From a virus, in IMG/VR virus record IMGVR_UViG_3300034106_000868, positions 1 through 28,721 of that record: 28,721 bases of DNA. One strand, 5' to 3'. Numbering within the stretch: the first letter of the stretch is position 1; every line of letters starts with the position of its first letter. The notes beneath the pieces were generated by a model. That model worked only from the letters and a program-made list of their open reading frames with translations, searched no databases and was not told the origin of the DNA. Both the position numbers and the translations under genes were made by a program. Positions 1 through 26,757 of this stretch are shown in pieces.

Positions 1-89
1 AACACTACCTCGCCGTAGAAGTCAGGACTCTTCTCGTTGACCTTGTTCTTGCTGTAGTTCAGCTTCCCGCTATTTGGATACTTGTTCAT
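1..89 (-). CDS. Small conserved phage protein, C-terminus cut by window edge
   Basis: The reading frame opens at the ATG at 89-87 and runs off the left edge, so only about 29 residues are visible. They begin MNKYPNSGKLNYSKNKV and continue to a SPDFYGE motif. The N-terminal pattern (NSGKL..SKNK..KSPDF.GE) is one I associate with small phage proteins encoded beside ERF/RecT-type recombination genes; its function is not known to me. The start lies 20 nt inside the end of the ERF gene, so this is the last visible member of the minus-strand operon and is probably translated by coupling. Confidence 0.6.
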   Translation of the reverse strand, partial: MNKYPNSGKLNYSKNKVNEKSPDFYGEVV

Positions 90-768
90 CGAAAGATTCC
101 TTGTAAGTTTTAAATGTCTTTGTAAGCTCTGGATAAGCCATACTGTCACGCTGCTCTACTATCTTGTAGATGTTGGCGTTCGTGCGCCAGACAGTCATCA
201 CATCTTCTTTGTTCTGAGCCATGTCCAGGGCAAAGACGGTTCCCTGTACAACAACGGATAGCCAATCATTCCAATCAGTATCTGGATCGGTTGTAACTTT
301 TATTCTCCACTGACTGTCCTTACCTTCCACAGCCTTAGGCGGCGGAGCTTCAGTAACTTTTGGCGTCGGCTTCGGTGGCGCTGCCACTGGCGCAGTCTTT
401 GTTGCTTGGTTACCATCGTCATCCTCCGTTGCGAGGGAGCAGGCTGCCATCAAACTATAACGGCGGGCATAGCTCAAAGCACTCCCGTAGCCCTGCGCGT
501 CATGCTTGATTGCTGGCATAAACAAGCTGCCAGCCGACAGTTGCTCGCCTGACTCGTGAATAAAAGTAGTAGATACCTTCACACCACCATCATGCTCATC
601 TGTCAGTTGCATGAGGTAGATACCGTTGTTGTTGAGCGCAGTAATCACCGCCTCGATACACGCCGACAGATCCGCATACTTAGAACGGAAATGTGGGTTG
701 GTACTAGATTTCAGAGCTGGGCCAAACTCTCGCTGCGCTTTTACTAGCGCCGATGCTATTTCTTTCAT
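70..768 (-). CDS. erf: ERF-family single-strand DNA annealing protein
   Basis: This 232-residue protein is a phage recombinase of the ERF superfamily, which anneals complementary single strands during recombination-dependent replication or genome circularisation. The diagnostic core is visible: HFRSKYADL at residues 26-34, then DAQGYGSALSYARRYSL at about 90-106, followed by the acidic LATEDDDGN at 112-120. Residues 121-150 are a Pro/Ala-rich linker and the C-terminal third is variable, as is usual in the family. The start has an AGGA box, and the ATG overlaps the upstream gene's stop as ATGA. The nuclease three genes upstream is the natural partner, together resembling a Red-type exonuclease/annealase pair. 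Confidence 0.93.
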   Translation of the reverse strand: MKEIASALVKAQREFGPALKSSTNPHFRSKYADLSACIEAVITALNNNGIYLMQLTDEHDGGVKVSTTFIHESGEQLSAGSLFMPAIKHDAQGYGSALSYARRYSLMAACSLATEDDDGNQATKTAPVAAPPKPTPKVTEAPPPKAVEGKDSQWRIKVTTDPDTDWNDWLSVVVQGTVFALDMAQNKEDVMTVWRTNANIYKIVEQRDSMAYPELTKTFKTYKESFDEQVSK

Positions 769-983
769 GTTGTTTCCTTAAGTGGTCTTCCTGCTTTTTT
801 GCGCGGTGTACCGTCTTTCTTTAATCCATACGGTGCTTCTTCAGATACTTTCCTGCGCATACGTTCTGCTTTGGTTAACTTTCTTTCTGTTAATACTTTT
901 ACCTCTTGCCGCAGTTCAAAAAACTTGAGCAGACTCTTTAAGCGACCCTCGTCTAGATCAATAATCCGTATCTCAAATTTCAT
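765..983 (-). CDS. Small basic protein with AT-hook-like C-terminus
   Basis: This is a 72-residue protein I cannot name. The N-terminal half is a plausible helical segment (MKFEIRIIDLDEGRL...). The C-terminal half is strongly basic and ends with GTPRKKAGRPLKETT, where the GRP core flanked by Lys/Arg resembles an AT-hook minor-groove DNA-binding motif. The start is preceded by AAGGTGA, and the stop overlaps the ERF start as ATGA, so the two are translationally coupled. Sitting between the nuclease and ERF genes, a DNA-binding accessory role in recombination is reasonable, but that is inference. Confidence 0.7.
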   Translation of the reverse strand: MKFEIRIIDLDEGRLKSLLKFFELRQEVKVLTERKLTKAERMRRKVSEEAPYGLKKDGTPRKKAGRPLKETT

Positions 984-992
984 GGCGTCACC

Positions 993-1139
993 TTAGTAGC
1001 AATTGGTTGTGCAGCTACTGCCGTAGCAGCATGTAGTACAAGTAGTGCAACGGCCTTGATTGCAGTAGGTGTTGTATGTGCATGATGCGTAAGCCATAGA
1101 TGCTGCACTGATTGCCCAAGCGGCGATTAAATATTTCAT
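993..1139 (-). CDS. Secreted cysteine-rich micro-protein (48 aa)
   Basis: This is a 48-residue gene. The protein starts MKYLIAAWAISAASMAYA, a good Sec signal peptide (Lys at 2, hydrophobic core 3-16, A-x-A site near 16-18). The mature part of about 30 residues has eight cysteines (C20, 26, 31, 34, 37, 38, 43, 47) and is otherwise Thr/Ser/Tyr/Gly/Asn-rich. Expression is supported by the ATGA overlap with the stop of the upstream nuclease gene. Export to the periplasm with disulfide bonding is expected. Function is unknown; superinfection exclusion or envelope modification are possibilities but not shown. Confidence 0.72.
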   Translation of the reverse strand: MKYLIAAWAISAASMAYASCTYNTYCNQGRCTTCTTCCYGSSCTTNCY

Positions 1140-2008
1140 GACTTCTCCTTTAAATAGGTTTGGTATTGATTACAGAATGGCGCTGCTTGACAGAAGCTTT
1201 CGCATCTAGTCCTGCCGCCTTCTCTTGTTTCTATGTAGTGTGATTCTTTTTGTTGTCCCGCAAATGCTGCTGCTTCTTCTTTGATCTCAAAGACTTTCTT
1301 CGCCCGCTTGCCACCTTCTTTCATAACAGCATAGGTGGTCTTCTTCTCCCACATTTCCTCTGACGTACACTGCGGCATCTTTCCACTGATGCTGGCAAAG
1401 TTAGCTTCGTTGTGCAGAGTCAGTCTACGGCGCACAAACTCTTCACGGTCTTCGTATGACCAAAGAGGAATATCAAGAGTAACTATCGGTGATTGTGGGT
1501 AGGTATCTTTTAGAGCTGCTTCCCTGCGCGACCAATCCCGCACGATGCCAATGATTTGTAGGCCAGCTACCTTATCGCCTTTCACGCTCTCAACTAGCCA
1601 CGCGTACAGGTTTAACTGGTTTATCCATTCCTGCTTCTCTTGCTGGACTGCCCACGCGGATGTCACCTTGTAGTCGGAAATAAGTACCTTGCCCCCTATC
1701 ATTTCTTGTAAATCTATAGCACCAGAAATAGACCAACCTTCAAACATAGTAAACAGGCGTTCTTCTACGATGTGGTGGTCATCCTTGCCATGCTCTAAGA
1801 TATTGTGAACCGCACTGCCAAACAGCGACCAGACCATATCTGCTGCGTCTTGCTCGATATCTTCTTGATGTTGTCTGCGGAGTAATACCAGTTGCGGTGG
1901 TGACAGTATCTCTGTGACGCTGATTTCACTGCTACCTTTACTGTATTGAGGTCTGCGGATTACGTTAACAAACGTCTCCGGCAGATTGAATTTATTTGTA
2001 AGTTTCAT
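1136..2008 (-). CDS. PD-(D/E)XK nuclease, RecB/Cas4-like exonuclease
   Basis: This 290-residue protein has the hallmarks of RecB/Cas4-type PD-(D/E)XK nucleases. GSAVHNILE contains the early His (H68), ISGAIDL contains D99, ISDYKV gives the D112-x-K114 pair, and QLNLYAWL at 131-138 is the family's QxxxY helix. Four cysteines (C214, then C269, C273 and C279 near the C-terminus) are spaced as in the iron-sulphur-cluster members (AddB, Cas4). I chose the ATG at 2008 over the frame's earlier start at 2164 because GGGAGGG lies about 6 nt upstream and the promoter at 2034-2062 lies inside the longer version. Probable role: 5'-to-3' resection feeding the ERF annealase. Confidence 0.87.
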   Translation of the reverse strand: MKLTNKFNLPETFVNVIRRPQYSKGSSEISVTEILSPPQLVLLRRQHQEDIEQDAADMVWSLFGSAVHNILEHGKDDHHIVEERLFTMFEGWSISGAIDLQEMIGGKVLISDYKVTSAWAVQQEKQEWINQLNLYAWLVESVKGDKVAGLQIIGIVRDWSRREAALKDTYPQSPIVTLDIPLWSYEDREEFVRRRLTLHNEANFASISGKMPQCTSEEMWEKKTTYAVMKEGGKRAKKVFEIKEEAAAFAGQQKESHYIETREGGRTRCESFCQAAPFCNQYQTYLKEKS

Positions 2009-2018
2009 ATACACCCTC

Positions 2019-2053
2019 CCTAGATGTAGTGCTATAATATGCCTAGATGTAGT
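2019..2053. promoter_or_regulatory. Direct-repeat operator pair CCTAGATGTAGT
   Basis: Two exact 12-bp copies lie at 2019-2030 and 2042-2053, 23 bp apart. One is in the promoter spacer and the other is just downstream of the -10 box. A near copy (CCTAGATATAG) at 3334-3344 sits just after the rightward promoter, suggesting one regulator controls both early promoters. Confidence 0.6.
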
Positions 2054-2062
2054 TCCTGTCAA
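2034..2062 (-). promoter_or_regulatory. Sigma70-like promoter of the leftward recombination operon
   Basis: Read on the minus strand, TTGACA (2062-2057) is followed by a 17-bp spacer and TATTAT (2039-2034). This gives a predicted start near 2027, about 20 nt ahead of the nuclease ATG. It is the best promoter match in this part of the window. Both the spacer and the start region contain a CCTAGATGTAGT operator copy. Confidence 0.8.
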
Positions 2063-2104
2063 CAGGTGTAGCAAATAAAATGTATGTGTTGCATTGCTGG
2101 AAAG

Positions 2105-2118
2105 TGGAAACTCTTCCA
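2105..2118. repeat. Palindrome TGGAAACTCTTCCA (copy of dispersed motif)
   Basis: This is one of seven exact TGGAA-N4-TTCCA sites in the window. It lies about 43 bp upstream of the leftward -35 box. Its core, ACTC, is the same as in the copy at 7189-7202. Confidence 0.7.
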
Positions 2119-2236
2119 GTAAGTTTATGATATTGTTGTAACGGGAAAGCCAGCCAGACTTCACTCTCCTTCAGTTGTGATCTCCTCCCTGGCTGGTGAG
2201 TACCTCTCGCTTGAGTCTTAAGGGAAGACTCTTCAG

Positions 2237-2260
2237 CCCCACTTCGGTGGGGTTCTTTTT
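2237..2260 (+). terminator. Intrinsic terminator with UUCG loop
   Basis: The stem CCCCAC/GTGGGG closes a TTCG tetraloop and is followed by TTCTTTTT. The T-tract is present only in the plus-strand reading. A second stem at 2213-2231 lies immediately upstream. What transcript it ends is unclear; no convincing plus-strand promoter is visible upstream. Confidence 0.75.
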
Positions 2261-2370
2261 CAAGACGCATGACCATTGTTGGACGCGAAAACGTAAAGCG
2301 GACTAACCCAGAAGCGGGAAGCCACAGAACACTAGGTCGCTGTGGTAGCAAGACGGGGAAACTCAGTGGT

Positions 2371-2386
2371 CAGCCGTGTTGGTGAA
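2371..2386. repeat. 16-bp direct repeat, copy 1
   Basis: CAGCCGTGTTGGTGAA is identical to 2543-2558, 172 bp apart. Both copies lie in the non-coding region, each next to a predicted stem. Confidence 0.7.
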
Positions 2387-2542
2387 ATTCAGCCGTAAGG
2401 CAAACAGAATGGGTCTGTTGACTCACAGTGCGAGTCGAGAAGTCAACCGGCATCTGGGGCCGTTCGCATACCAGTTCTAACACGCATGAGGATTGAAGGA
2501 CTATAGACCTGCCGGACGCGTTCCGACTTTAAGTGCAGTCCT

Positions 2543-2558
2543 CAGCCGTGTTGGTGAA
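2543..2558. repeat. 16-bp direct repeat, copy 2
   Basis: This is an identical copy of 2371-2386. A 13-nt part of the same sequence also occurs inside a gene at 4052-4064, which may be chance. Confidence 0.7.
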
Positions 2559-2686
2559 TGCGTAGGCTGATACGTCATGGACTGATCCTCAGCGTTGGGC
2601 AGATAAAGAACCCTTCCAAGCCGGAGATCAGCGCCGGCCACCAACAACCTGTTATCAAAGTATCAATCCGTTTTCGGAGGGATAGA

Positions 2687-2851
2687 ATGCAATACAACAG
2701 AGAGCTTATAGAAGACCTACGCGAGATAGCCATTCTGTACCACGCAAGCAGTCTGCTTTCTTACAAGTTGCAAGAAGTATTAGACCGCCACATCCCACAT
2801 CTTAGCGAAACCTGTATGGAAAGAGGCTGTGTAGATTACACGCTTGCATAA
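2687..2851 (+). CDS. Small hypothetical protein (54 aa)
   Basis: The start at 2687 is chosen because CGGAGGG lies 6-7 nt upstream; the frame stays open further 5' but without a ribosome-binding site. The 54-residue product begins MQYNRELIEDLREIAILY and looks largely helical and amphipathic, with two cysteines near the C-terminus. I recognise no family. It is isolated between non-coding stretches, and a strong terminator follows about 60 nt after its stop, so it may be the only gene of its transcript or be embedded in a longer regulatory RNA. Confidence 0.5.
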   Translation: MQYNRELIEDLREIAILYHASSLLSYKLQEVLDRHIPHLSETCMERGCVDYTLA

Positions 2852-2884
2852 AATAATTTCCTGATTTATTATCTGCTCGTCACT

Positions 2885-2984
2885 GTGCGGGCAGAGACAA
2901 TCAACCAAGCCCTCAAGCTTTGGTTCTTTCCCCGAAAGGGCGTGCCCGCACACGAAGAGCCAAACCTTGAGGGTTTTTCTTTTC
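2885..2984 (+). terminator. Complex terminator hairpin with GNRA loop and pseudoknot potential
   Basis: The outer stem CCCTCAAG/CTTGAGGG with extended pairing of the TTGGTTCTT side spans 2910-2973 and is followed by TTTTTCTTTT. Inside are two small hairpins: CCC-GAAA-GGG (a GNRA tetraloop) and CGTG/CACG, whose loop CCCGCA is complementary to TGCGGG upstream at 2886-2891. The full match GTGCGGGCA (2885-2893) with TGCCCGCAC (2943-2951) is nine base pairs, giving a pseudoknot. This is more elaborate than an ordinary terminator. Confidence 0.7.
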
Positions 2985-3300
2985 CGGTGACCGTACCTTC
3001 CCACGATAGCAACGAGCCTGCATGGGCTGCTGGGAGAGAAAACACTGGTAGAGGTCTAACCCGCCTGCTAACCACGCCACCTGTCAGTGAGGGATGGCAC
3101 AAGAGGGAAGGGCCAGTGGTGAGACATACCTTCCATCGAGATAATCGCTGCCTTCATGGTTTGCTAGTATCCAGCAGTACGGATATGGGCATGGAGTGAT
3201 AGTTCCCTAATCGCATGCTGCGCACTTAGGGGTGGGCTATCACCCATGGGGAACCTAGAAGCTGATGATGCAATAGATGGGATAAGACAGGAACTAACTG
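2985..3300 (+). other. Non-coding region with further RNA stems
   Basis: There is no recognisable gene here. Visible structure includes AGCC/GGCT around 3013-3030 nested in CCCA/TGGG, and a nested hairpin formed by GTGATAG (3196-3202) with CTATCAC (3237-3243) enclosing CCCTAA (3205-3210) with TTAGGG (3226-3231). With the upstream structured block this gives about 1 kb of putative structured RNA or regulatory DNA ahead of the rightward promoter. Confidence 0.45.
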
Positions 3301-3329
3301 TTGACACGTATAAGATTACATATTATTGT
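3301..3329 (+). promoter_or_regulatory. Sigma70-like promoter of rightward early genes
   Basis: TTGACA (3301-3306), a 17-bp spacer, then TATTGT (3324-3329); the -10 matches 4 of 6 consensus bases. The operator-like CCTAGATATAG follows at 3334-3344, directly before the AGGAGG ribosome-binding site of the first gene. Confidence 0.65.
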
Positions 3330-3352
3330 TCGCCCTAGATATAGGAGGTCAC

Positions 3353-3523
3353 ATGAAAGAAGGAGAGTGGATTAAGGATCATCTGCGGGAGTTTGCAGAT
3401 CGTTTGGAGCAGGCGGTAATAGAGCGAGAAAGAGAAAGAGCGGCAGTCATTTGCCACTACTACAGAGATTGGCAGGATAACCCTGCTGAGGCCATAGCTA
3501 CGGCTATATTAAAAGGAGAGTGA
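3353..3523 (+). CDS. Small charged phage protein (56 aa)
   Basis: The ATG at 3353 is preceded by a near-perfect AGGAGGT 4 nt upstream, so it is preferred to the in-frame ATG at 3326, which lies inside the promoter. The protein starts MKEGEWIKDHLREFADRL and is almost wholly a charged helix with an EREREREA-type run, ending AIATAILKGE. It resembles the small helical proteins common in phage early regions; no function is known to me. It is the first gene after the rightward early promoter, and its end runs into the ribosome-binding site of the next gene. Confidence 0.7.
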   Translation: MKEGEWIKDHLREFADRLEQAVIERERERAAVICHYYRDWQDNPAEAIATAILKGE

Positions 3524-3525
3524 AG

Positions 3526-4191
3526 ATGGATATGAAAGTCAAAGAAACATCGGTAGTTATTTCTGCACCCAATTTCCAAGCAGTCGATGTTCTGCTACAG
3601 GGTACAGCGCCGCTAGTCGTTGAGCGGTTTAGTAAGAAGGCAGAACTCATGGCTAAGATGGCAGAGGGTAAGTCTGCCGGTAGCAAGAAGGTTCGTGATG
3701 CCCGCGACTACGACAAAGAATCAGAGGCCGCACGTTACCGCTCAGAAGAAAACTGGGAAGGTATGAATGCTGCTGCTTTCCGCGCCGGTATGATCAGCGC
3801 ATGTCGTTTAGTAGGTTTTAAGATGACACTCGCCAAGCTATCAACATTCGTTGTGGCTGACGGCTTTGATCTCCAGGATGGTATCCCGCTCATCCGTATC
3901 TATGGCACCAGCGAAACTTATACAGCTCACACACGCAACGCAACAGGCGTGGTTGATGTACGTAGCCGTCCTATGTACCGCGAGTGGGCAGCACGTTTGC
4001 GTATACGTTTTGACTCGGATCAGTTCACAGCACAAGATGTCTACAACTTAGTCAGCCGTGTTGGGTTGCAGGTAGGTATAGGTGCAGGACGTCCTGACTC
4101 TAAGGCTTCGGCTGGCTGTGGTTTTGGTACGTTTGAAATTGTGCCTAACGACAAAGAGAAAGAAGTCCTAAAGAAATTTGGCATTAAGTAA
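3526..4191 (+). CDS. Conserved phage protein of unknown function beside the pentamer array
   Basis: This is a 221-residue protein (ATG at 3526, AAAAGGAGAG 6-7 nt upstream; a GTG two codons earlier is possible). It begins with a beta-rich part containing APLVVERFSKKAELMAKM, has a mid-region FRAGMISACRLVGFKM, and closes with a basic/Gly-rich segment around VGIGAGRPDSKASAGCGFG. I recall this layout (PL(I/V)...FS.K near the N-terminus, G(V/I)G..RP.....G.G.F near the C-terminus) from many phage genomes, always unnamed. The Gly-rich end is reminiscent of RRM/Cas7-like folds, but that is speculation. Its stop is doubled (TAATAA) and the GGYNN array begins at once. Confidence 0.8.
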   Translation: MDMKVKETSVVISAPNFQAVDVLLQGTAPLVVERFSKKAELMAKMAEGKSAGSKKVRDARDYDKESEAARYRSEENWEGMNAAAFRAGMISACRLVGFKMTLAKLSTFVVADGFDLQDGIPLIRIYGTSETYTAHTRNATGVVDVRSRPMYREWAARLRIRFDSDQFTAQDVYNLVSRVGLQVGIGAGRPDSKASAGCGFGTFEIVPNDKEKEVLKKFGIK

Positions 4192-4194
4192 TAA

Positions 4195-4768
4195 GGCTAG
4201 GTGTGGAGTGGCACGGTGGGGTGTGGTTGGGTTTGGTGCGTCACGGCAGGTCAGGCGAGGTTTGTTGGGGTATGGTGCGGCGCTGCGCGGACTGGTTCGT
4301 TGGGGCAGGTGCGTCGTGGTTCGTTGTGGTTTGTTGTGGCAACGTCAGGCATGGAGGGGTTCGTCAAGGCAGGCGGGGTTAGGCGCGGATAGGTGTGTTT
4401 TAGTAGGGTGTGGTGAGTTAAGGCAGGTGGGGAATGGCCTGGTAAAGCGAGGAGCGGTTTGGTGAGTTGAGGCAGGCCCGGTATGTTGCGGCGGGGTAAG
4501 TCACGGTTCGATGCAGTTCGGTAAGGCAGGTGAGGCGGGACAAGGTTGGGCACTGTGAGGTAAGGCAGGTATGACATGGTCTGGCGAGGTTCGGTGCGGT
4601 TCGTTACGGCAGGTGGGGTTAGGCGGCGCAAGGTGGCGTTAGGAGTGGTGCGGCAGGTATGGTTCAGTAGGGATGGGCTAGGCTAGGTGGGGTTTGATCA
4701 GGCACGGAAAAGCACGGCAGGTGAGGTGTGGCACGGAACGGTAGGGCGGGGTGAGGTACAGCAGGCAA
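4195..4768 (+). repeat. GGYNN pentamer array punctuated by GGCA tetramers
   Basis: The stretch parses without remainder into pentamers with consensus GGYNN (105 units from 4195 to 4763) and 11 tetramers: GGCA at 4245, 4304, 4368, 4422, 4471, 4525, 4564, 4608, 4652 and 4716, and AGCA at 4760; a final GGCAA follows. By hand count 68 of 105 pentamers are perfect GGY and 37 have exactly one mismatch in the first three bases; none has two. Positions 4-5 are free. Runs between tetramers are 7 to 12 pentamers long. The array starts 4 nt after one stop codon and ends just before the AAGGAG of the next gene, so it should be transcribed as about 570 nt of G-rich intercistronic RNA. Open frames within it follow from the composition and are not credited as genes. 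Confidence 0.9.
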
Positions 4769-4785
4769 ACTTTAAGGAGATCAAC

Positions 4786-5280
4786 ATGGAAGTAATGAAA
4801 GCAGAAGCACTAGCAGAAGAGCGCAAGCTATTGGAAAAGATTGCCAACAAGAATGGCGGTCTGTTGATGGTTGATGATGTACTGGATGAAGCTAGAAATC
4901 CTAAGTCAATCCTCCACAAACATTTCCAGTGGGATGATGACAAGGCCGCAGAAGCGTATCGCAAGATGCAGGCACGGCAGCTTATTCAGAAGTGCGTAGT
5001 CACCATAGAGAAGGCGCCAGACGTACCTATTCGTGCGTTCGTCAGTCTATCTACTGATCAGTATGAAGGCGGTGGTTATCGCCTGACATCTAATGTTCTT
5101 TCAGATGAACAGCAGAAAGGTCAGTTGTTGCATGACATGCACCTCACATTGTTGAAGTGGAAGAAGCAAGTAAATTTGTTGGACACAGAAACAGAAGAAA
5201 TCCTTGATCGTTTGGAGCGAGTCATCACCCGTCGCGTAAGTGATCGGCGCGGAAAGGAAATTGCAAATGAAGCCACGTAA
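4786..5280 (+). CDS. Conserved phage protein of unknown function (164 aa)
   Basis: The start is the ATG at 4786 with AAGGAG 7 nt upstream; the open frame extends back into the repeat array, but that part is array sequence. The product begins MEVMKAEALAEERKLL, followed by GGLLMVDDVLDEARNP and LHKHFQWDDDKAAEAYR, then QARQLIQ. This combination (dVl..Ar.P.S.Lh..F.Wdd..AA..yR..QAR.LI) defines a widespread phage family with no assigned function that I know of. The second half is helical and charged. It is followed by an overlapping gene (14 nt overlap). Lying just after the array, its translation could be influenced by that RNA. Confidence 0.8.
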   Translation: MEVMKAEALAEERKLLEKIANKNGGLLMVDDVLDEARNPKSILHKHFQWDDDKAAEAYRKMQARQLIQKCVVTIEKAPDVPIRAFVSLSTDQYEGGGYRLTSNVLSDEQQKGQLLHDMHLTLLKWKKQVNLLDTETEEILDRLERVITRRVSDRRGKEIANEAT

Positions 5281-5515
5281 CTACGTAGCCAGAGCGCAAC
5301 AGTCAGGCGCAGGCAGGCACAACAGTCAACACGCAGCCAGATTAAAAGAACAAGCCAAGAGAGCGTTACTGCACGAGGTAGAAGCCTTAAAACTTAACGA
5401 GCTTCATTCCACCTTTTATGGGATGCAGAACGAGCCAGTTCGGGAAATACGCAAACGACTAGACCCGCAACTAACGGCGCATGAGATCAGAGAGATCAAC
5501 AACGATAAGGACTAA
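5267..5515 (+). CDS. Small basic phage protein (82 aa)
   Basis: I place the start at the ATG at 5267 (GGAAAGGAAA upstream) rather than at 5240, because residues from MKPRNYVARAQQ onward resemble the short basic phage proteins that start with a K-RN-VA motif. The first 30 residues are rich in Arg, Gln, His and Asn; the rest is helical, with EVEALKLNELHSTFYGM and a C-terminal LTAHEIREINNDKD. Nucleic-acid binding is plausible from charge only. It overlaps the preceding gene by 14 nt and is separated from the next by 2 nt. Confidence 0.65.
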   Translation: MKPRNYVARAQQSGAGRHNSQHAARLKEQAKRALLHEVEALKLNELHSTFYGMQNEPVREIRKRLDPQLTAHEIREINNDKD

Positions 5516-5517
5516 TC

Positions 5518-6633
5518 ATGATCCAGTTCAACAGATACAAACTACCTGACGAGACGCACGATTTTTACGGGGCATTCGTCAACCTAGTAAACACATTGGC
5601 TGCTGAGATAAACGGTGATTGCCCACGCTCTATCGGCCTGCTGATGTCATTGGCGGAAAGGTTTCCACTGAACGACAGGATACCTGCGGTGGCTGCGCGC
5701 ATGTTCTACTGGGGCAAGGTCAGTTGGTCAACGATAGAAAGAATGATGCCAGCCAAGCTGCCTGCAAACTTCTTCTACAAGCAGGAGTTGGTCGGCTGTC
5801 TGGGGTTTGAACATTCAGCCCGCAAGTGGCGCATCACAGAGGATCAATGGCACTTGTATCAAGGATTTGCAGATGAATACGTAGACATTCCTGTTAGTGA
5901 TGAGATGGTTTCATACCGCCCGCGCAACAGTGGATTCTTCAGCACAATCGAGAACATCATAGCAGCGCACATCATCGCTGACTTGGAAGGTAAGCGGTTA
6001 GCGATAGACTTGAGTGGCAACTGGTGGGGGTACGATGAACCATTTGAAGATATCTTTGATAAAACATTTGAGTTCACTCGGGATGGAGTATTGCCCCAGA
6101 TTAGCTTTGATGGAATGCGTCATAAATGGATTCATGCTGACGATAAATTGGCGGCTAGTCTGGCTTATTTAAAACAGGATTACTACACAGCTATCGTAGA
6201 AGACATTGCCAAAATAGCGCAACCTATAACTAACATGGATAGTGCTGGCGTGATGTTTGTGCGCGGCGGTGACAAGCTACAGACTGAGACTATCCTGCCG
6301 CCTATGAAGTTTTTGCTGCGTGATCTCAAATGGATGGCGCGCAGGTGTGATGAGCGGTATGTCATATCGGATGACAAGCACGTAGGAGAATCGGTATCTG
6401 CGCTTGATTCATTTGTTGTGGACAAGAGTAACAAAATACATGGTGGGTATCACCACCACTATGGACGCAAGAGTAGCTGCAAGAACATCCTTAGCAACTA
6501 CATGACGATGGTAGAAGCGAAAGAAAACTTTAGCTGCCCGTCCGCTAATCTGGTGAATGCTGCCCAATGGAGCCGGAACGATAAAGATAACTACAGTTTT
6601 GCTAATCCGGTGTACCGATACCTATTGATATAG
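5518..6633 (+). CDS. Putative fucosyltransferase-like glycosyltransferase
   Basis: This is a 371-residue protein. GVMFVRGGDKLQTE at about 244-257, followed some 25 residues later by RYVISDDKHVGES (280-292), resembles the H-x-R-R-x-D-K ... YVA(T/S)DD pattern of GT-B fucosyltransferases (NodZ/FUT8, O-FucT-like). NSGFFSTIENIIAA near 137-150 could correspond to the N-terminal G-x-(G/F)..(Q/N) acceptor loop. An HGGYHHHYG segment near residue 314-322 is unusual. If the call is right, it would transfer a sugar from a nucleotide donor; candidate acceptors are phage DNA bases, a virion protein or host surface glycan. There is no base-modification gene next to it except the methyltransferase-like gene at 10287. 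The fold assignment is tentative. Confidence 0.45.
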   Translation: MIQFNRYKLPDETHDFYGAFVNLVNTLAAEINGDCPRSIGLLMSLAERFPLNDRIPAVAARMFYWGKVSWSTIERMMPAKLPANFFYKQELVGCLGFEHSARKWRITEDQWHLYQGFADEYVDIPVSDEMVSYRPRNSGFFSTIENIIAAHIIADLEGKRLAIDLSGNWWGYDEPFEDIFDKTFEFTRDGVLPQISFDGMRHKWIHADDKLAASLAYLKQDYYTAIVEDIAKIAQPITNMDSAGVMFVRGGDKLQTETILPPMKFLLRDLKWMARRCDERYVISDDKHVGESVSALDSFVVDKSNKIHGGYHHHYGRKSSCKNILSNYMTMVEAKENFSCPSANLVNAAQWSRNDKDNYSFANPVYRYLLI

Positions 6634-6642
6634 GGGAATGTT

Positions 6643-6747
6643 ATGGAAACATTTGAATACTTTACTTTGCTGGGGGGAATAATGATTGGCATGGGTGTGT
6701 TGTTGTTCATTATTGCGGCGTGTGTCGCATATTTACTTGGGGAATAG
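6643..6747 (+). CDS. Single-pass membrane micro-protein (34 aa)
   Basis: This short gene reads METFEYFTLLGGIMIGMGV and continues through a hydrophobic run (LLFIIAACVAYLLGE) to a TAG at 6745-6747. GGGGAA lies about 4 nt before the ATG. Residues 9-32 form one transmembrane helix. It sits tightly between two genes (9 nt after the upstream stop, 1 nt before the next ATG), which supports it being real. Function is unknown. Confidence 0.6.
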   Translation: METFEYFTLLGGIMIGMGVLLFIIAACVAYLLGE

Positions 6748-6748
6748 A

Positions 6749-7540
6749 ATGAATATTGGCTTAGACAAAATAAGAATAGACGGCGGGACGCAGAGTCGGG
6801 TGAAGATAGACGAGAACGTGGTAGCTCAGTACGCAGATGAAATGCTAAATGGAGATCAATTCCCGCCAGTCGTTTTGTTTCATGATGGCGTGGACTACTG
6901 GTTAGCAGATGGTTTCCACCGTTACTTTGCAAACAAGCGGATCAATTCACCTGGCATCAGCGCAGAAGTTAAAGATGGAAGCGTCAGAGACGCCATCCTG
7001 CACGGCATCAAGGCCAACAACAAGCACGGCCTACGTCCTACCAACGAGGACAAGAGAAAAGGCGTCATGACGATGCTGAAGGATATTGAATGGCAAGACT
7101 ACAGTAACCGCGATATCGCTGAAATCTGTGGCGTATCCCATACCCTTGTCAATGCCATAAGAAAAGAGTTGGAAGAAGGCAAGCCAAGTGGAAACTCTTC
7201 CACAGTTAAAGTAAATTCTAGGATAGCAAAACCTTCTGACCCTGCTGTGGAGTTTAACCAAGGTGAGATCGAGCGCGAGACATTACGTGCGGCGGCAGAT
7301 ACTTTGCAGAAAGAGAACGAGGATTTGCAGGACAAGCTGACAGTAGCAATGGCCTCTGGCACTGATGATGTAGAGAAGGAAAAAGCACAATCGATCATTA
7401 AAGATTTACGCGCACAGATCAGGCTTTTGGAGATAGAATTAAAAGCTGTCACCACTTCGCGTGACCAATTCCAAAGAGAGAATGCACAGCTTATGAAGCA
7501 GGTAGCTATGCAACAAAAGAGTCTTAAAAAATTAGCGTAA
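6749..7540 (+). CDS. ParB-like nuclease/HTH domain protein with coiled coil
   Basis: This is a 263-residue protein. Residues 1-90 form a ParB/Srx-like domain: GTQSRVKIDENVVAQYADEM, FPPVVLF, and the signature LADGFHRYFA (52-61). Residues 118-140 (NRDIAEICGVSHTLVNAIRK) are a helix-turn-helix. A Ser/Thr/Lys linker follows, and residues 170-263 are a long coiled coil. The ATG at 6749 follows GGGGAA; the frame's earlier start lies within the membrane micro-gene. Phage members act as transcription or replication regulators, sometimes with nuclease activity. It precedes the helicase and primase, so a replication role is likely. The linker coincides with a TGGAA-N4-TTCCA palindrome at 7189-7202. Confidence 0.85.
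   Translation: MNIGLDKIRIDGGTQSRVKIDENVVAQYADEMLNGDQFPPVVLFHDGVDYWLADGFHRYFANKRINSPGISAEVKDGSVRDAILHGIKANNKHGLRPTNEDKRKGVMTMLKDIEWQDYSNRDIAEICGVSHTLVNAIRKELEEGKPSGNSSTVKVNSRIAKPSDPAVEFNQGEIERETLRAAADTLQKENEDLQDKLTVAMASGTDDVEKEKAQSIIKDLRAQIRLLEIELKAVTTSRDQFQRENAQLMKQVAMQQKSLKKLA
7189..7219 (+). repeat. Dispersed palindrome plus AGTTAAAGTAA flank
   Basis: TGGAAACTCTTCCA (7189-7202) is followed by CAGTTAAAGTAAATTCT. The same palindrome-plus-flank arrangement makes up the 37-bp tandem repeat at 15542-15629. Here it lies inside the ParB-like gene and encodes its linker. Confidence 0.7.
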
Positions 7541-7584
7541 TCAAACCCAAGCCAGCGGGTTAGTGCTGGCAGCGAGAGGGATCA

Positions 7585-9060
7585 ATGGCATTAAATCTAC
7601 GCTCCTATCAGAAGCAAACATTAGTAGCTTTGCGTGAAGGATTTGCAAAGGGTAGGAAGGCACAAATACTGTACGCCCCTACAGGTGCAGGCAAAACAGA
7701 AATGGCTATCGCTCTGATGGCTGCGACACAAACCAAAGGAAACAAAGCGGCGATGTTATTAGACCGCGTGGTTCTTTGCGACCAGACCAGTAAACGTCTG
7801 GAGAAGTACGACATAGCGCATGGCGTCATGCAGGCAGGGCATTGGCGTTACAGACCCTACGAAAACATACAGGTGTGTTCAGCTCAGACTCTTGAGCGGC
7901 GTGGGTCATTTCCAGGATTAAATCTTCTGATCGTGGACGAGTGTCACCAAACCCGCGAGCAGACAGTCCAGTTCATCAAAGACAATCCCAATGTAAGAGT
8001 AATAGGTCTGACTGCTACTCCGTTCACGAAGGGCTTGGGGAAGATATACGACAACGTGGTCTCTGTTGTTACCACTAAGCAACTGGTAGATGACAAGGTG
8101 TTGGTTCCTCTGCGCGTATTCATAGCGAAAGAGATAAACATGGAAGGCGCGAAGAAGATCGGCGGCGAGTGGTCAACAGAAGAAACAACCAAGCGCGGCA
8201 TGGTCATTACAGGCGATGTGGTAGCAGAGTGGGTAAAGAAAACCCATGAGATATTCGGTCGGCCTCGCAAGACAATCGTGTTTGCATCAGGCGTGGAGCA
8301 TGGCGTTCACCTCGCCCGCAAGTTCCAAGAGCAGGGGCATAACTTCATCTGCATATCTTACAAAGATGATGACGAGTGGAAGAAGCAGGTTATCGAGGAC
8401 TTTAACAAGCCTGATACACAGATTACTGGCTTGATCGCTACGGATATTTTGACCAAAGGGTTCGATGTGTCGGACGTAATGATCGGCGTATCTGCTAGAC
8501 CATTTAGTAAGTCTTTGTCATCCCACATTCAGCAGATGGGCAGGGTCATGCGCGGGCATGATGATAAAGAATTTGCGGTGTGGCTAGACCATTCAGGTAA
8601 CTATCTTAGGTTCAGGGAAGACTGGGATAAAGTCTTTGAGGAAGGCGTAGAAGTTCTTGATGATGGAAAAGAGAAGGCCAAGAAGGAACCAACAGAAAAA
8701 GTAAAGGAGCAGAGTAAGTGCCCGCAATGCGCTGCTCTATGGCCTACGGGGTCGGATACTTGCTACAACTGCGGTCATGTCAAAGAGAAGAAGAATAAGG
8801 TGTTCTCTCTCGATGGCGAGATGGTCGAGCTGACTGGAAACATTTCCAGAGACAGCAAGCAGGAGTTCTGGAGTCAGATGGTCTGGTATATGCGCGTCCA
8901 GGGGTGGTCTAAAGGCAGAGCAGCTAACACATACAAGGATAAGTTTGGCGTCTGGCCTCGTGGCCTGCGGGACGATACTCCTGCGCTACCGTCTGATGAT
9001 ACGAGAAAGTTTATAGACAAGAAGTTAAAGCAGTTCTTGCGTAGTGTGGGGAGAAGATAA
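7585..9060 (+). CDS. SF2 DEAD/DEAH-box helicase with C-terminal zinc ribbon
   Basis: This 491-residue superfamily-2 helicase resembles phage SSL2/RadD-type enzymes. Walker A is APTGAGKT (31-38), the DEAH-box variant is DECH (118-121), motif III is TATP (143-146) and motif VI is QMGRVMRG (317-324). Residues 379-396 carry two CxxC pairs (C379/C382 and C393/C396), a zinc ribbon, then a helical tail. It should unwind or remodel DNA with ATP during phage replication. RBS-like GAGAGGG lies 4 nt before the ATG. The stop overlaps the next start (TAATG), coupling it to the primase. A hairpin GCCAGC/GCTGGC lies in the short leader at 7553-7572. Confidence 0.92.
   Translation: MALNLRSYQKQTLVALREGFAKGRKAQILYAPTGAGKTEMAIALMAATQTKGNKAAMLLDRVVLCDQTSKRLEKYDIAHGVMQAGHWRYRPYENIQVCSAQTLERRGSFPGLNLLIVDECHQTREQTVQFIKDNPNVRVIGLTATPFTKGLGKIYDNVVSVVTTKQLVDDKVLVPLRVFIAKEINMEGAKKIGGEWSTEETTKRGMVITGDVVAEWVKKTHEIFGRPRKTIVFASGVEHGVHLARKFQEQGHNFICISYKDDDEWKKQVIEDFNKPDTQITGLIATDILTKGFDVSDVMIGVSARPFSKSLSSHIQQMGRVMRGHDDKEFAVWLDHSGNYLRFREDWDKVFEEGVEVLDDGKEKAKKEPTEKVKEQSKCPQCAALWPTGSDTCYNCGHVKEKKNKVFSLDGEMVELTGNISRDSKQEFWSQMVWYMRVQGWSKGRAANTYKDKFGVWPRGLRDDTPALPSDDTRKFIDKKLKQFLRSVGRR
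8835..8848. repeat. Palindrome TGGAAACATTTCCA
   Basis: This is an exact TGGAA-N4-TTCCA site inside the helicase gene. It lacks the AGTTAAAGTAA flank. A related site with a 5-nt centre (TGGAAACGGTTTCCA) lies at 9124-9138 in the primase gene. Confidence 0.55.
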
Positions 9061-9905
9061 TGGACTTCATTCAATTTGCTCGCAGTCATGGCATCTTAAT
9101 CGACAATCTGCCGCCGCTCGGTGTGTGGAAACGGTTTCCAACAGAAGATCATCCACGTTCACGCAATGGCGCAGTGAAGTACATGGGCGATGTGGGTTTT
9201 GTTCAGAACCATGCGACAAGCACCGTCGTATCTATATGGAAGCCTGACTCTCCCATTACAACTAAAGTTAAATCAACCTACCTCGCGTCCATCCGTAATG
9301 CCGAGGATGAGCAGAAGAAGAAGCAGCATCAAGCTATGCAGAGGGCGGTAGGAATGCTTAACGGTAGTGGCATGAGTACGCATCCATATTTGGAAGCAAA
9401 GGGATTTAAGGACGAGCAGGGAAATGTACTGTGGCAGGACGGTAAGCCTGTTCTTCTGATCCCGATGCGGGTGGCAGGTAATCTGGTCGGTTTGCAGCAG
9501 ATAGATCAAGACGGCGGGAAGAAGTTCTTGTACGGACAGCGTACAAGTAACGCTGTGTTCACGTTCGATAACAAGGGTATGAATGTACTGTGCGAGGGCT
9601 ATGCTACTGCTCTGTCTGTTCGTCTGGCATTTAAGCAGATGAAACAGCGTTATACCCTGCACGTATGTTTCAGCGCAGGGAACATGGCTAAGGTGGCTGC
9701 TGGGCTTGAGGCGGGGCTTCTGATCGCAGACAACGATGCGTCTGGTACAGGGCAGCGCGTGGCAGAAGAAAGCGGTTGGAAGTATTGGCTGTCTGATCGT
9801 GTCGGCGAGGACGCTAACGACTTTCATCAACGGGTTGGACTGTTTCAGTTTACACAAAGCCTGACCCGCTCAATGCAAAATGTCGGTGCGGTTCGGCATA
9901 CCTAA
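9060..9905 (+). CDS. Toprim-domain phage primase (DnaG-like, no zinc finger)
   Basis: This 281-residue protein has a clear Toprim core: VLCEGYATALS at 176-186 carries the catalytic Glu, LIADNDASGTGQ at 221-232 carries the DxD-type metal site, and VGEDANDFHQ lies at 248-257. Upstream, LLIPMRVAGNLVGLQQID is the RNA-polymerase-like beta segment of DnaG-type primases. I see no CHC2 zinc finger at the N-terminus, and the C-terminal helicase domain of T7 gp4 is absent. It would synthesise primers with the SF2 helicase encoded immediately upstream (TAATG overlap). Its last 36 nt overlap the convergent minus-strand gene; no terminator is visible between them. Confidence 0.87.
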   Translation: MDFIQFARSHGILIDNLPPLGVWKRFPTEDHPRSRNGAVKYMGDVGFVQNHATSTVVSIWKPDSPITTKVKSTYLASIRNAEDEQKKKQHQAMQRAVGMLNGSGMSTHPYLEAKGFKDEQGNVLWQDGKPVLLIPMRVAGNLVGLQQIDQDGGKKFLYGQRTSNAVFTFDNKGMNVLCEGYATALSVRLAFKQMKQRYTLHVCFSAGNMAKVAAGLEAGLLIADNDASGTGQRVAEESGWKYWLSDRVGEDANDFHQRVGLFQFTQSLTRSMQNVGAVRHT

Positions 9906-14563: not shown

Positions 14564-14596
14564 ATGCAATACCTCAATGGAATTAACGTATTGCAT
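14564..14596. promoter_or_regulatory. Inverted repeat in the divergent control region
   Basis: ATGCAATAC (14564-14572) and GTATTGCAT (14588-14596) are perfect 9-bp inverted copies separated by 15 bp. Read leftward, the left arm overlaps a weak candidate promoter for the accessory operon (TTGCAT, 17-bp spacer, TACATT). This is consistent with a repressor site. Confidence 0.6.
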
Positions 14597-14651
14597 GAGA
14601 GGTTCTTTAGCTAAAAGCATGCCAGCGCAAAACCTAGCAAATGCGTTGATC

Positions 14652-14702
14652 GGTGTAACATTTGTGACAGGTGTAACTGTTACAGGTGTAACAGGTGTTA
14701 CA
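14652..14702. promoter_or_regulatory. Cluster of GGTGTAAC operators upstream of the late promoter
   Basis: GGTGTAAC occurs at 14652, 14670 and 14685, with GGTGTTAC at 14694. They combine into palindromes TGTAAC-T-GTTACA (14672-14684) and TGTAAC-AGGT-GTTACA (14687-14702). They lie 30-80 bp upstream of the late -35 box, a typical place for activator binding. In an extended reading of the terminase frame they would encode Gly-Val-Thr repeats, but I favour operators. Confidence 0.65.
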
Positions 14703-14730
14703 TTATCAAATAAGCAATTTTGCTTAGACT

Positions 14731-14760
14731 TTGACTATTCTGTGGATGTTCCTGTATATT
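14731..14760 (+). promoter_or_regulatory. Late (packaging/head) promoter
   Basis: TTGACT (14731-14736; 5 of 6), an 18-bp spacer and TATATT (14755-14760; 5 of 6). The predicted start is near 14767, about 38 nt before the terminase small-subunit ATG at 14805. This argues against translation starting at 14577. A GC-rich stretch (14771-14788) forms the leader. Confidence 0.7.
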
Positions 14761-14804
14761 CTGGGCAATTCGGCGCGGCGCGCGCGGCAGATAATCGGTG
14801 CAAT

Positions 14805-15575
14805 ATGAAAACAATCACAAGGAAGCAAGCAAAGGAAGCTATACAGTCCAAAGGGCTAGAAGGTGCATTGCATCTAGGTAAATCCGGCCTTACAGCCAAA
14901 CAGAGACGATTTGCAGAGGGGATAGTATTAGAGGGTTTAACCGGTGCGGATAGTTACCGGCAAGCGTATAACGCGAAGGGCAAACCGAAAACAGTCGGGA
15001 ACCATGCCAGCGCGTTAAAACAGCATGATGGAATCCGGCGGGAAATGGACATGCTGGAACTACACAAACAAAGGGCTGCACAATATTCCATTGATTCAAT
15101 CAAGGCTTTGATTGTTTCAACACTAACTGACATCGCTGTAAACTCAGACCGAGACGCCGTAAGGGTAAGCGCAGTTAAGACGCTCGGAGTAATTTCCGGC
15201 GTTGACATGTTTAGGGAAACTAAGCGCATCGAGACGGTGAAAGATAGCGACGAGATACGCGAGCAGATACTAGGACAGCTTAAAACAATGATGCTCGGGT
15301 CAGGCGATGCGGTAGAAGTGGATGCAAACGACCTGCTATCAGAACTGACAGCCGCCGACCCTACCACCGCCCCACCCCCCGAAACTGTCGATGGGACTCC
15401 GGCTGACTCTATACATACTATTCCACTCGAACCATCCCAAGAATTTACCGATCCTACAGAAGACCCCCCGTCATCTCTAGATTCATCCACCCCCCAGGGG
15501 GATATATTTTTAGAAGATGAGGAAGGTTATCAAGATGCTACTGGAAGAGTTTCCACACTTAAAGTAAAGTCTTAA
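14805..15575 (+). CDS. terS: Terminase small subunit
   Basis: A 256-residue protein from the ATG at 14805 (ribosome-binding site weak). GLTAKQRRFAEGIVLEGLTG, followed by ADSYRQAYNAKGKPKTVGN and A..L.....IRREMDMLE, is the classic helix-turn-helix N-terminal domain of Terminase_2-type small subunits, which bind the packaging start site. A helical oligomerisation region follows (to about 150). The last 80 residues are acidic and Pro/Thr/Ser-rich, an unusually long tail. It would load the large subunit encoded at 16121. The end of the gene runs into a 37-bp tandem repeat that could be the recognition site. Confidence 0.85.
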   Translation: MKTITRKQAKEAIQSKGLEGALHLGKSGLTAKQRRFAEGIVLEGLTGADSYRQAYNAKGKPKTVGNHASALKQHDGIRREMDMLELHKQRAAQYSIDSIKALIVSTLTDIAVNSDRDAVRVSAVKTLGVISGVDMFRETKRIETVKDSDEIREQILGQLKTMMLGSGDAVEVDANDLLSELTAADPTTAPPPETVDGTPADSIHTIPLEPSQEFTDPTEDPPSSLDSSTPQGDIFLEDEEGYQDATGRVSTLKVKS

Positions 15576-15629
15576 GAGTGGAAGAGTTTCCAAAGTTAAA
15601 GTAACTTCTTAAGAGTGGAAAGATTTCCA
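15542..15629 (+). repeat. 37-bp tandem repeat carrying TGGAA-N4-TTCCA palindromes
   Basis: Three palindromes begin at 15542, 15579 and 15616, exactly 37 bp apart: TGGAAGAGTTTCCA twice and TGGAAAGATTTCCA. The first two are followed by a conserved flank (CTTAAAGTAA or GTTAAAGTAA, then TTCTTAAGAG or GTCTTAAGAG). The array starts within the last 12 codons of the terminase small-subunit gene and ends just before the next gene. Related palindrome-plus-flank is at 7189. Confidence 0.85.
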
Positions 15630-25071: not shown

Positions 25072-25689
25072 ATGAAACACAAAGTAAAAAAATACGCTGG
25101 CAAAGATTCTAGTTTGGTTGAGATAGAAGAGCGTTCTACTAAAAGTCCCAGCGTAATAGCAGAAGAGTTAGCTAAAGGCCCGATGGACTATGCAACTATG
25201 GGTAAGCGAGCTGGTGCAACACCTGCCCGCTCAACAATGTCTGGCCCGGTAGAATACATCTCTGAATCTATTAAAGAAGATACAGAAAAAGAATCGCCGC
25301 GAGGTATAGCTTCTGGATTTAAGTCAGGCGAATCAAAGTTTGAGCGCGATGACAATGAAGTAAAGATGCCTGTAGTAAAGAAGAAGGCAGTAAAGAAAGC
25401 GCCTGCAACACAATCATCTCAGTCATTTCCTACTCGTGATAGAGATCGCGCTGATCAATCTTTCCCGCTTAAAACTGATGATAAAAAAGTTCCACCTCTT
25501 CGCAAGATTGGTGAAGCAATCATGGGCACGATGGAAAACAAACCATTCCGTTCATCTATGTACGACAAGATGAAAGGCCGCAAAGCCGGTGGCTCTATAA
25601 AAATGGCTTCTGGTGGCAAAGTTTCTAGCGCATCATCCCGTGGTGACGGTATAGCCCAGCGCGGTAAAACTCGCGGAAAGATGTGCTAA
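25072..25689 (+). CDS. Lys-rich phage protein with SASxRxDGIAxRGKTRG C-terminal motif
   Basis: A 205-residue, disordered-looking, strongly basic protein. It ends with MASGGKVSSASSRGDGI followed by AQRGKTRGKMC, the tag that recurs in the next gene. Similar tags occur in short proteins of other aquatic phages; their function is unknown. It could be internal virion protein or DNA-condensing. AAGGATAAG precedes the start. Confidence 0.68.
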   Translation: MKHKVKKYAGKDSSLVEIEERSTKSPSVIAEELAKGPMDYATMGKRAGATPARSTMSGPVEYISESIKEDTEKESPRGIASGFKSGESKFERDDNEVKMPVVKKKAVKKAPATQSSQSFPTRDRDRADQSFPLKTDDKKVPPLRKIGEAIMGTMENKPFRSSMYDKMKGRKAGGSIKMASGGKVSSASSRGDGIAQRGKTRGKMC

Positions 25690-26222
25690 TGGCTACCAGA
25701 ATGGATGATATGGATACAGCATTTCCATTACCTAAGCCTGGTAAACGTATTAGATTAGATGATGACGTTAAACCACTTCCTAATCCTAAACCTGCAAAAC
25801 CGGGTGAAATAGGAAAAACTGCTACTCCATATAAAAAATCTGGAACTAATGAAGGTACAGATCAATCATCTGCTGAAAAGAACTTGCGCCAAGATTTTGA
25901 AAACATGAAAGCTGATGAACGTCAAAAGAAAGCACGAGAAACTTTTGATAAAGCACCACCTATGAAGAAGGGCGGCAAAGTGAAAAAGTACGCAGATGGC
26001 GGCATGACACAGCAGCCTACGTATCCTTTCTATGGCAATCAGCCACAAGCTGGCGGTCAGAATGGCGGCACTAATCAGACGTTTAACATGCAGCCACAGG
26101 CTAATGCAGGCGCTCCTAATCCACAGCAACAACCTATGCAGACATTTAAGAAGGGTGGAAAAGTTTCCAGTGCTTCTAAACGTGCGGATGGAATTGCTAT
26201 AAGGGGTAAGACTCGTGCCTAG
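25689..26222 (+). CDS. Lys/Gly/Gln-rich protein ending in the shared RGKTR tag
   Basis: A 177-residue protein starting at 25689 (TAATG overlap). The Pro/Lys N-terminus is followed by MKKGGKVKKYADGGM and a Gln/Asn/Gly-rich middle, and the C-terminus FKKGGKVSSASKRADG + IAIRGKTRA repeats the tag of the preceding protein. KKGG and YADGG motifs also recur in the two following genes. Intrinsically disordered; function is unknown. Confidence 0.66.
   Translation: MATRMDDMDTAFPLPKPGKRIRLDDDVKPLPNPKPAKPGEIGKTATPYKKSGTNEGTDQSSAEKNLRQDFENMKADERQKKARETFDKAPPMKKGGKVKKYADGGMTQQPTYPFYGNQPQAGGQNGGTNQTFNMQPQANAGAPNPQQQPMQTFKKGGKVSSASKRADGIAIRGKTRA
26156..26169. repeat. Palindrome TGGAAAAGTTTCCA
   Basis: The rightmost exact TGGAA-N4-TTCCA site. 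It encodes the GGKVSS part of the shared C-terminal tag, so its presence could reflect codon choice; the paralogous tag at 25615-25633 lacks the exact palindrome. Confidence 0.5.
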
Positions 26223-26757
26223 CGTGAGTAAAAAGCAGGAAAGGTTTATGCAGGCGGTAGCTCACAACCCTGCGTTTGCCAAAAAGGCCGGTGTGCCGCA
26301 GAGTGTGGGTAAAGAGTTTACTAAATCAGGAGGCGGTATGGCTGAGTCAAAGAAGATGGTTAAGAAAGAAGTGTCGTTTATGAAGTCTAAAGGCGCTCCT
26401 AAGTCCATGATCAAACATGAGATGAGCGAAGCTGGCATGAAAAAAGGCGGCATGATGAAGAAGATGGCTAAGGGTGGATACGCTGATGGCGGTATGCCTA
26501 TGGTCATGAAAGACGGTCAAAAAGTTCCAGCGTTTGCTGCTGATGGCAAAGGCAAGATGGCTAAAGGCGGCATGGCTATGAAAAAGATGGCATCCGGTGG
26601 CATGACATCAATGGGCAAAGTAAAGACTGCTGCTCCTAGTAAAGACGGTGTTGCTATGAAAGGCAAAACCAAAGGCACGATGGTTAAAATGGCTGGCTCT
26701 ACCGGTATGAAAAAAGGCGGTATGGCTAAGATGAACAAAGGTGGACGGGCCTGCTAA
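26215..26757 (+). CDS. Met/Lys/Gly-rich repeat protein with SKKQERFM head
   Basis: A 180-residue protein from a GTG at 26215 (AGGGG upstream). The start VPSVSKKQERFMQAVAHNPA + FAKKAGVPQSVGKEFTKSG is a conserved phage motif also found as short stand-alone proteins. After about residue 60 it is a low-complexity repeat of K-G-G-M, MAKGGM and MKKMASGGM units. A variant (PSKDGVAMKGKTKG) of the shared tag is near the end. Function is unknown. Confidence 0.68.
   Translation: MPSVSKKQERFMQAVAHNPAFAKKAGVPQSVGKEFTKSGGGMAESKKMVKKEVSFMKSKGAPKSMIKHEMSEAGMKKGGMMKKMAKGGYADGGMPMVMKDGQKVPAFAADGKGKMAKGGMAMKKMASGGMTSMGKVKTAAPSKDGVAMKGKTKGTMVKMAGSTGMKKGGMAKMNKGGRAC

What the first reader, a model, noticed from the sequence alone, without database searches (positions are those of the whole stretch)
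4195..4768. A 569-nt array written entirely in GGYNN pentamers
The whole stretch between two plus-strand genes parses into 105 pentamers and 11 tetramers with no leftover base. By hand count 68 pentamers have perfect GGY and 37 have a single deviation at one of the first three positions. None has two, and with about 12% mismatch per position several doubles would be expected if mismatches were independent. Base 3 is never G. Bases 4-5 vary freely, so it is not a simple copy repeat: a pattern is being maintained while sequence identity is not. That implies selection for spacing and a GG mark every 5 nt, for example by a protein or RNA that reads it, or a synthesis mechanism that writes it. I cannot match it to a named element.
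Basis: seen in the sequence. Interest (0 to 1): 0.95.

Follow-up and report, generated by a model that had tools for sequence, protein, structure and literature searches.

The report
Phage guide-RNA array, VIPR system
The odd five-letter repeat is a string of eleven guide-RNA cassettes belonging to VIPR, a recently described CRISPR-like weapon that phages use against rival mobile elements; the system is already known, but this copy shows where each guide begins and ends and which genes two of its guides match.

Summary
Window 4195-4768 parses into 106 pentamers and 11 tetramers: 69 perfect GGYNN, 37 with one deviation, none with two. It is the vrRNA (guide) array of a VIPR system, described in a 2026 preprint (PMC13142463). 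The gene just upstream (3520-4191) is a Vipr: a profile of its family finds only SUSP1 Vipr in the PDB (E 2.6e-6), and its predicted fold matches Csm-complex RAMP chains.

The GGCA tetramers cut the array into 11 guides of 7-12 NN dinucleotides. Read by the published 1-nt-skip rule, guide C3 matches the integrase gene of a probable phage satellite 24/24, and C2 matches phage family-A DNA polymerase genes 22/22 in three contigs. For 400 related guides on 66 contigs chosen by integrase protein, the 1-nt rule gives 82 hits at E<1e-3; other spacings and shuffled guides give none. 456 of 457 integrase hits put the skipped base at the codon wobble position.

Bases 4-5 therefore do not vary freely: they are the message. 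Published: the system and its code. New here: this member, GGCA as guide separator, no SUSP1-type tail, a clade-specific accessory gene, and targets.

The parts
3520..4191 (+). vipr gene: 223-aa RAMP-fold protein that should bind the GGY marks
   Evidence: phmmer to PDB 36pp_D SUSP1 Vipr E 9e-4; family profile without SUSP1-type members E 2.6e-6; AlphaFold2 model pLDDT 79.8, top Foldseek matches Csm-complex chains E 1e-5; phrog_4652, unknown function
4195..4768 (+). vrRNA array: 106 GGYNN pentamers and 11 tetramers, 11 guide cassettes
4195..4248 (+). cassette C1: TA GT GT AC GG GT TG TT GC AC + GGCA; no target found
4249..4307 (+). cassette C2: CA GA TT GG AT GC GC GC CT TC GG + GGCA; matches phage family-A DNA polymerase genes 22/22 in L213, L215, L217 (peptide QEFGIAAALSG), sense strand
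   Evidence: DNA_pol_A E 2.5e-16 for the L215 protein
4308..4371 (+). cassette C3: GC GT TC GT TT GT AA CA AT GG TC AA + GGCA; matches tyrosine integrase gene of L187 24/24, antisense strand
4372..4425 (+). cassette C4: GG TA GC TA GT TT AG GT GA AA + GGCA; best match 16/20 in an integrase gene of L351, suggestive only
   Evidence: null maximum 16
4426..4474 (+). cassette C5 + GGCA; no significant target
4475..4528 (+). cassette C6 + GGCA; no significant target
4529..4567 (+). cassette C7 (7 units) + GGCA
4568..4611 (+). cassette C8 + GGCA
4612..4655 (+). cassette C9 + GGCA
4656..4719 (+). cassette C10 (12 units) + GGCA; best match 20/24 with the 16-base core fixed by the search, not convincing
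4720..4763 (+). cassette C11 + AGCA
4786..5280 (+). candidate vap (VIPR accessory) gene, 164 aa, phrog_15946, unknown function
   Evidence: linked to vipr and array in nearly all family loci, including cyanophage, Mycobacterium and Gordonia phages and a Rhodoplanes plasmid, and no match in the SUSP1-type locus L252; only insignificant winged-helix matches

Best explanation
The array is the guide-RNA array of a VIPR (Viral Interference Programmable Repeat) system carried by an uncultivated tailed phage. It is probably transcribed with or after the upstream vipr gene. Vipr subunits should line up on the RNA, each gripping one GGY, leaving one NN dinucleotide per subunit to pair with DNA; the target is read as NNxNNxNN, skipping one base per step. 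GGCA tetramers separate consecutive guides of 7-12 dinucleotides. Two guides match genes of other mobile elements (the integrase of a probable satellite, a phage DNA polymerase) with the skipped base on the codon wobble position, so synonymous changes would not give escape. Binding would block transcription of those genes, possibly helped by the protein at 4786-5280. Shown here: the grammar, cassette structure, Vipr homology and predicted fold, gene linkage and 1-nt-skip targets. Published for the relative SUSP1 (PMC13142463): RNA expression, the RNP, DNA binding and repression. Inferred: expression, processing at GGCA and repression in this phage.
For: Vipr homology and RAMP fold. A DNA scan for the grammar alone returned 120 loci; 76 of the 95 with a clear array also carry a Vipr-like gene, 75 of these on the same strand and 75 within 1 kb, against one marginal hit (E 0.008) in 206 control loci. 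C3 hit 24/24 including 8 of 8 bases outside the searched core; C2 hit 22/22 in three contigs including 6 of 6 outside the core. Control on 66 integrase-selected contigs: 82 hits at E<1e-3 for skip 1, none for skips 0, 2, 3, 4, none for reversed or shuffled unit order. 456 of 457 integrase hits are antisense with the skip at codon position 3. The A of GGCA matches targets at chance (7 of 32), while first and middle units match 92%, so GGCA is a separator.
Against: No RNA or binding data exist for this phage. The SUSP1-type structured 3' tail is missing. Nine of the eleven window cassettes have no confirmed target in what could be searched. The L187 and PolA contigs were found by skip-1 patterns; only the second set (L343-L408) was chosen without guides. 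Host and target host are unknown, so a shared host is not shown. C7 has 7 repeats and C8, C9, C11 have 8, below the published 9-16.
Confidence: 0.93

Rival explanations
1. Same Vipr-guide complex, but in this clade it acts on mRNA rather than on double-stranded DNA.
For: 456 of 457 integrase matches are antisense to the gene, so the guide could pair with its mRNA.
Against: The C2 guide (DNA polymerase) and the L009 guide (ParB-like gene of L020) have the same sense as the target gene and could not pair with its mRNA. DNA binding and strand-independent repression are published for SUSP1 (PMC13142463).
Confidence: 0.08
2. A binding-site array for a regulatory RNA-binding ring protein of the TRAP type, with no guide content.
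For: Periodic triplets with 2-nt spacers resemble TRAP sites (own knowledge).
Against: GGY is not NAG; the neighbour is a RAMP-fold protein; the spacers match target genes exactly.
Confidence: 0.01
3. A slippage or tandem-duplication product, or a replication or DNA-structure element.
For: Repeat-like, G-rich and intergenic.
Against: Units are not copies of each other; homologous cassettes conserve the spacers; the vipr-array-vap module is absent as a block from close relatives.
Confidence: 0.01

Closest known systems
VIPR of Escherichia phage SUSP1 (type II; PMC13142463), compared here through phage Alf5, locus L252
   Same: Vipr RAMP protein, GGY/NN guides, 1-nt-skip code with the skip at wobble positions, targets on competing mobile elements including a satellite.
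   Different: Alf5 has four separate guide tracts of 10-16 units without GGCA separators, and the preprint reports a structured 3' tail. Here there is one continuous array of 11 guides split by GGCA, no tail, and a different accessory gene.
Other array architectures named in the preprint (staggered overlapping vrRNAs, hammerhead-interspersed arrays)
   Same: Variable array architectures across seven VIPR types.
   Different: No Rfam match, so no hammerhead, in the window. Matches stop at GGCA, so no overlap was seen. The supplement was not readable, so this clade may be one of the published types.
Class 1 CRISPR-Cas (Csm3/Cas7)
   Same: RAMP fold and RNA-guided reading with skipped bases.
   Different: No direct repeats with long spacers; non-contiguous dinucleotide guides; one small protein; phage-borne.
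TIGR-Tas
   Same: Phage-encoded RNA-guided array.
   Different: No Nop-domain Tas protein; the neighbour is a RAMP.

Membership tests
VIPR | Vipr protein, a RAMP homologue with SUSP1 Vipr as relative | tested here: met
   profile E 2.6e-6 to 36pp_D; Csm-complex fold matches
VIPR | Adjacent non-coding tandem repeats of GGY alternating with hypervariable NN | tested here: met
VIPR | Guides of 9-16 repeats | tested here: inconclusive
   7 of 11 window cassettes have 9-12 units, C8, C9 and C11 have 8 and C7 has 7
VIPR | Targets read with a 1-nt skip | tested here: met
VIPR | Targets lie on competing mobile elements | tested here: met
   C3 on the integrase of a satellite-like contig; L009 guide on the ParB-like gene of VIPR-bearing relative L020; that they compete in one host is not shown
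VIPR | Minimal locus with an accessory vap gene | tested here: met
   linked gene 4786-5280; its function was not established
VIPR type II (SUSP1 clade) | Invariant structured 3' tail after each guide | tested here: not met
   guides run directly into GGCA and the next guide
VIPR | vrRNA expressed and bound by Vipr; RNP binds DNA and represses | not testable with these tools
   needs experiment; published for SUSP1
Class 1 CRISPR-Cas | Array of direct repeats with long unique spacers | tested here: not met
TIGR-Tas | Nop-domain Tas protein beside the array | tested here: not met
   no Pfam match for either neighbour; the neighbour is a RAMP

The most novel reading that the evidence does not exclude
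This clade is a distinct VIPR architecture not separately described: tail-less arrays of many guides in which GGCA tetramers punctuate 7-13-unit guides, with its own accessory protein, whose guides repeatedly read conserved catalytic-motif codons of integrases (and, in C2, a polymerase motif), and in which close relatives differ by whole cassettes. That would imply a boundary or processing signal as small as 4 nt and some way of acquiring or exchanging guides.
Probability: 0.4. Interest if true: 0.8.

Novelty: new member of a known kind. Interest (0 to 1): 0.62.

Why it matters
It gives independent support for the 1-nt-skip code in a Vipr lineage only 22% identical to the SUSP1-type Vipr, locates guide boundaries from sequence alone, and shows which genes such phages aim at. 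Homologous arrays lie in culturable Mycobacterium and Gordonia phages now annotated only as hypothetical proteins, so guide processing and guide turnover can be tested in laboratory strains.

Tried and rejected
The first search of 437 cassettes against loci already fetched showed no skip preference, because few targets were in that set. The C10 core scan gave only partial matches. Rfam: no match in the window. Promoter and terminator scan: nothing at the array itself beyond what shuffles give. Pfam, NCBIfam and PADLOC: no name for vipr or the vap candidate. Fold search of the vap candidate: best E 0.27, winged-helix regulators, not significant. BLAST of the L187 integrase gene in the phage collection: no match. 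TRAP-like sites and slippage were considered and rejected.

Full report
Observation. The window is a 28,721-base virus record. Between 4195 and 4768 GG recurs every 5 nt far above dinucleotide shuffles (55 against 24.2 +/- 4.2). The stretch parses into 106 pentamers and 11 tetramers with no leftover base; 69 pentamers are perfect GGY, 37 deviate once, none twice (3.8 expected, P 0.008), and base 3 is never G. Tandem Repeats Finder sees only a two-copy 19-nt repeat there.

Identification. The upstream gene 3520-4191 matches one solved protein, SUSP1 Vipr (36pp_D; E 9e-4). That led to PMC13142463, a preprint of April-June 2026 describing VIPR: a RAMP protein plus vrRNAs of alternating GGY/NN whose NN bases pair with DNA while one target base is skipped per step. 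An alignment of 20 family members without any SUSP1-type sequence finds only SUSP1 Vipr in the PDB (E 2.6e-6). The AlphaFold2 model (pLDDT 79.8) matches CRISPR effector RAMP chains, mostly of Csm complexes (E from 1e-5, TM about 0.4).

Generality. 95 contain a clear array; 76 of those also encode a Vipr-like protein, 75 on the same strand and 75 within 1 kb, whereas 206 control loci of 2.16 Mb gave one marginal hit. In 64 loci fetched by the Vipr protein an array lies beside it in nearly all. Named relatives with GGCA-punctuated arrays are Cyanophage Cy-LDV1, Mycobacterium phage Donkeykong, Gordonia phages ODay and Pipp, and a Rhodoplanes serenus plasmid. Phage Alf5, whose Vipr matches a 51-aa fragment of SUSP1 Vipr 100%, has four separate tracts without GGCA.

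Anatomy. GGCA cuts the window array into 11 cassettes of 7-12 units. In the family the commonest spacing between tetramers is 8-13 units counting the tetramer; a sister clade (such as L049) also has shorter, irregular spacings. Target matches begin at the first unit after a GGCA (92% of bases), stay at 92% through the middle, fall to 72% in the last unit, and the A of GGCA itself matches at chance (7 of 32). GGCA therefore separates guides and is not part of the pairing. No tail follows the guides.

Targets. Scans with 8-unit cores of three window cassettes gave, for C3, a 24/24 match in L187, and for C2, 22/22 matches in L213, L215 and L217; C10 gave none. The L187 gene is a tyrosine integrase on a 9.8-kb contig that also has AAA, HNH, prohead protease and HK97-type capsid genes but no recognised large terminase or tail gene, like a capsid-forming satellite. 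The C2 gene is a family-A DNA polymerase (Pfam E 2.5e-16 for L215); the peptide QEFGIAAALSGD looks like polymerase motif A (own knowledge). In both, the skipped base is the third codon base.

Controlled test. 66 further contigs were chosen by the L187 integrase protein, not by guides. 400 cassettes gave 82 hits at E<1e-3 with a 1-nt skip and none with skips of 0, 2, 3 or 4, none with reversed or shuffled unit order or with each dinucleotide reversed. The hits at E<0.01 come from 24 distinct cassettes, fall on several integrase sites including the HGFR..FRDWA active-site region, and 456 of 457 hits inside the gene (E<0.1) are antisense with the skip at the wobble base. Hits on homologous integrases are not independent of each other. 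A guide of L009 matches the ParB-like gene of L020, another VIPR phage, 22/24.

Evolution. Among six phages with 96-99% identical Vipr, shared cassettes keep their order but whole cassettes are present or absent. In 75 homologous cassette pairs positions 4 and 5 change at 6.4 and 7.7 percent, close to positions 1 and 2 (4.4, 5.6), while position 3 changes at 12.6, mostly between C and T. The gene at 4786-5280 accompanies vipr and the array throughout this clade, and close relatives L253, L255, L258 and L259 share the flanking genes but lack vipr, array and this gene together, so the module is gained or lost as a block. Its function is open: fold search gave only insignificant winged-helix matches.

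Verdict. The array belongs to a known kind of system, made public as a preprint in 2026.

Noticed in passing
L187 (IMGVR_UViG_3300031825_000208), 1-9810: Probable capsid-forming phage satellite: P4-type integrase, AAA protein, HNH, prohead protease, HK97-type capsid; hit in its integrase by guides from several VIPR phages.
   Followed up: partly
L253, L255, L258, L259: Close relatives of the window phage lacking the vipr-array-vap block; L253 and L255 carry a protein of about 378 aa (MYYVKRFLDYIFDLIGY...) at that place.
   Followed up: partly
L247, L248, L249, L250, L251: Vipr-like genes and GGCA-punctuated arrays in Cyanophage Cy-LDV1, Mycobacterium phage Donkeykong, Gordonia phages ODay and Pipp and a Rhodoplanes serenus plasmid, all annotated as hypothetical proteins.
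   Followed up: partly
L134:7605-8944, L086:6301-7010, L085, L108, L107, L069: Very long arrays almost without tetramers (268 and 142 units) and arrays with other delimiters (GGCG, CGCA, GGAC), suggesting several punctuation schemes.
   Followed up: no
window 25072-26757: Three consecutive lysine- and glycine-rich ORFs end in similar motifs (DGIAQRGKTRG, DGIAIRGKTRA, DGVAMKGKTKG).
   Followed up: no
window 15542-15629: A 37-nt tandem repeat of 2.4 copies, 88% alike, at the end of the ORF 14577-15575.
   Followed up: no
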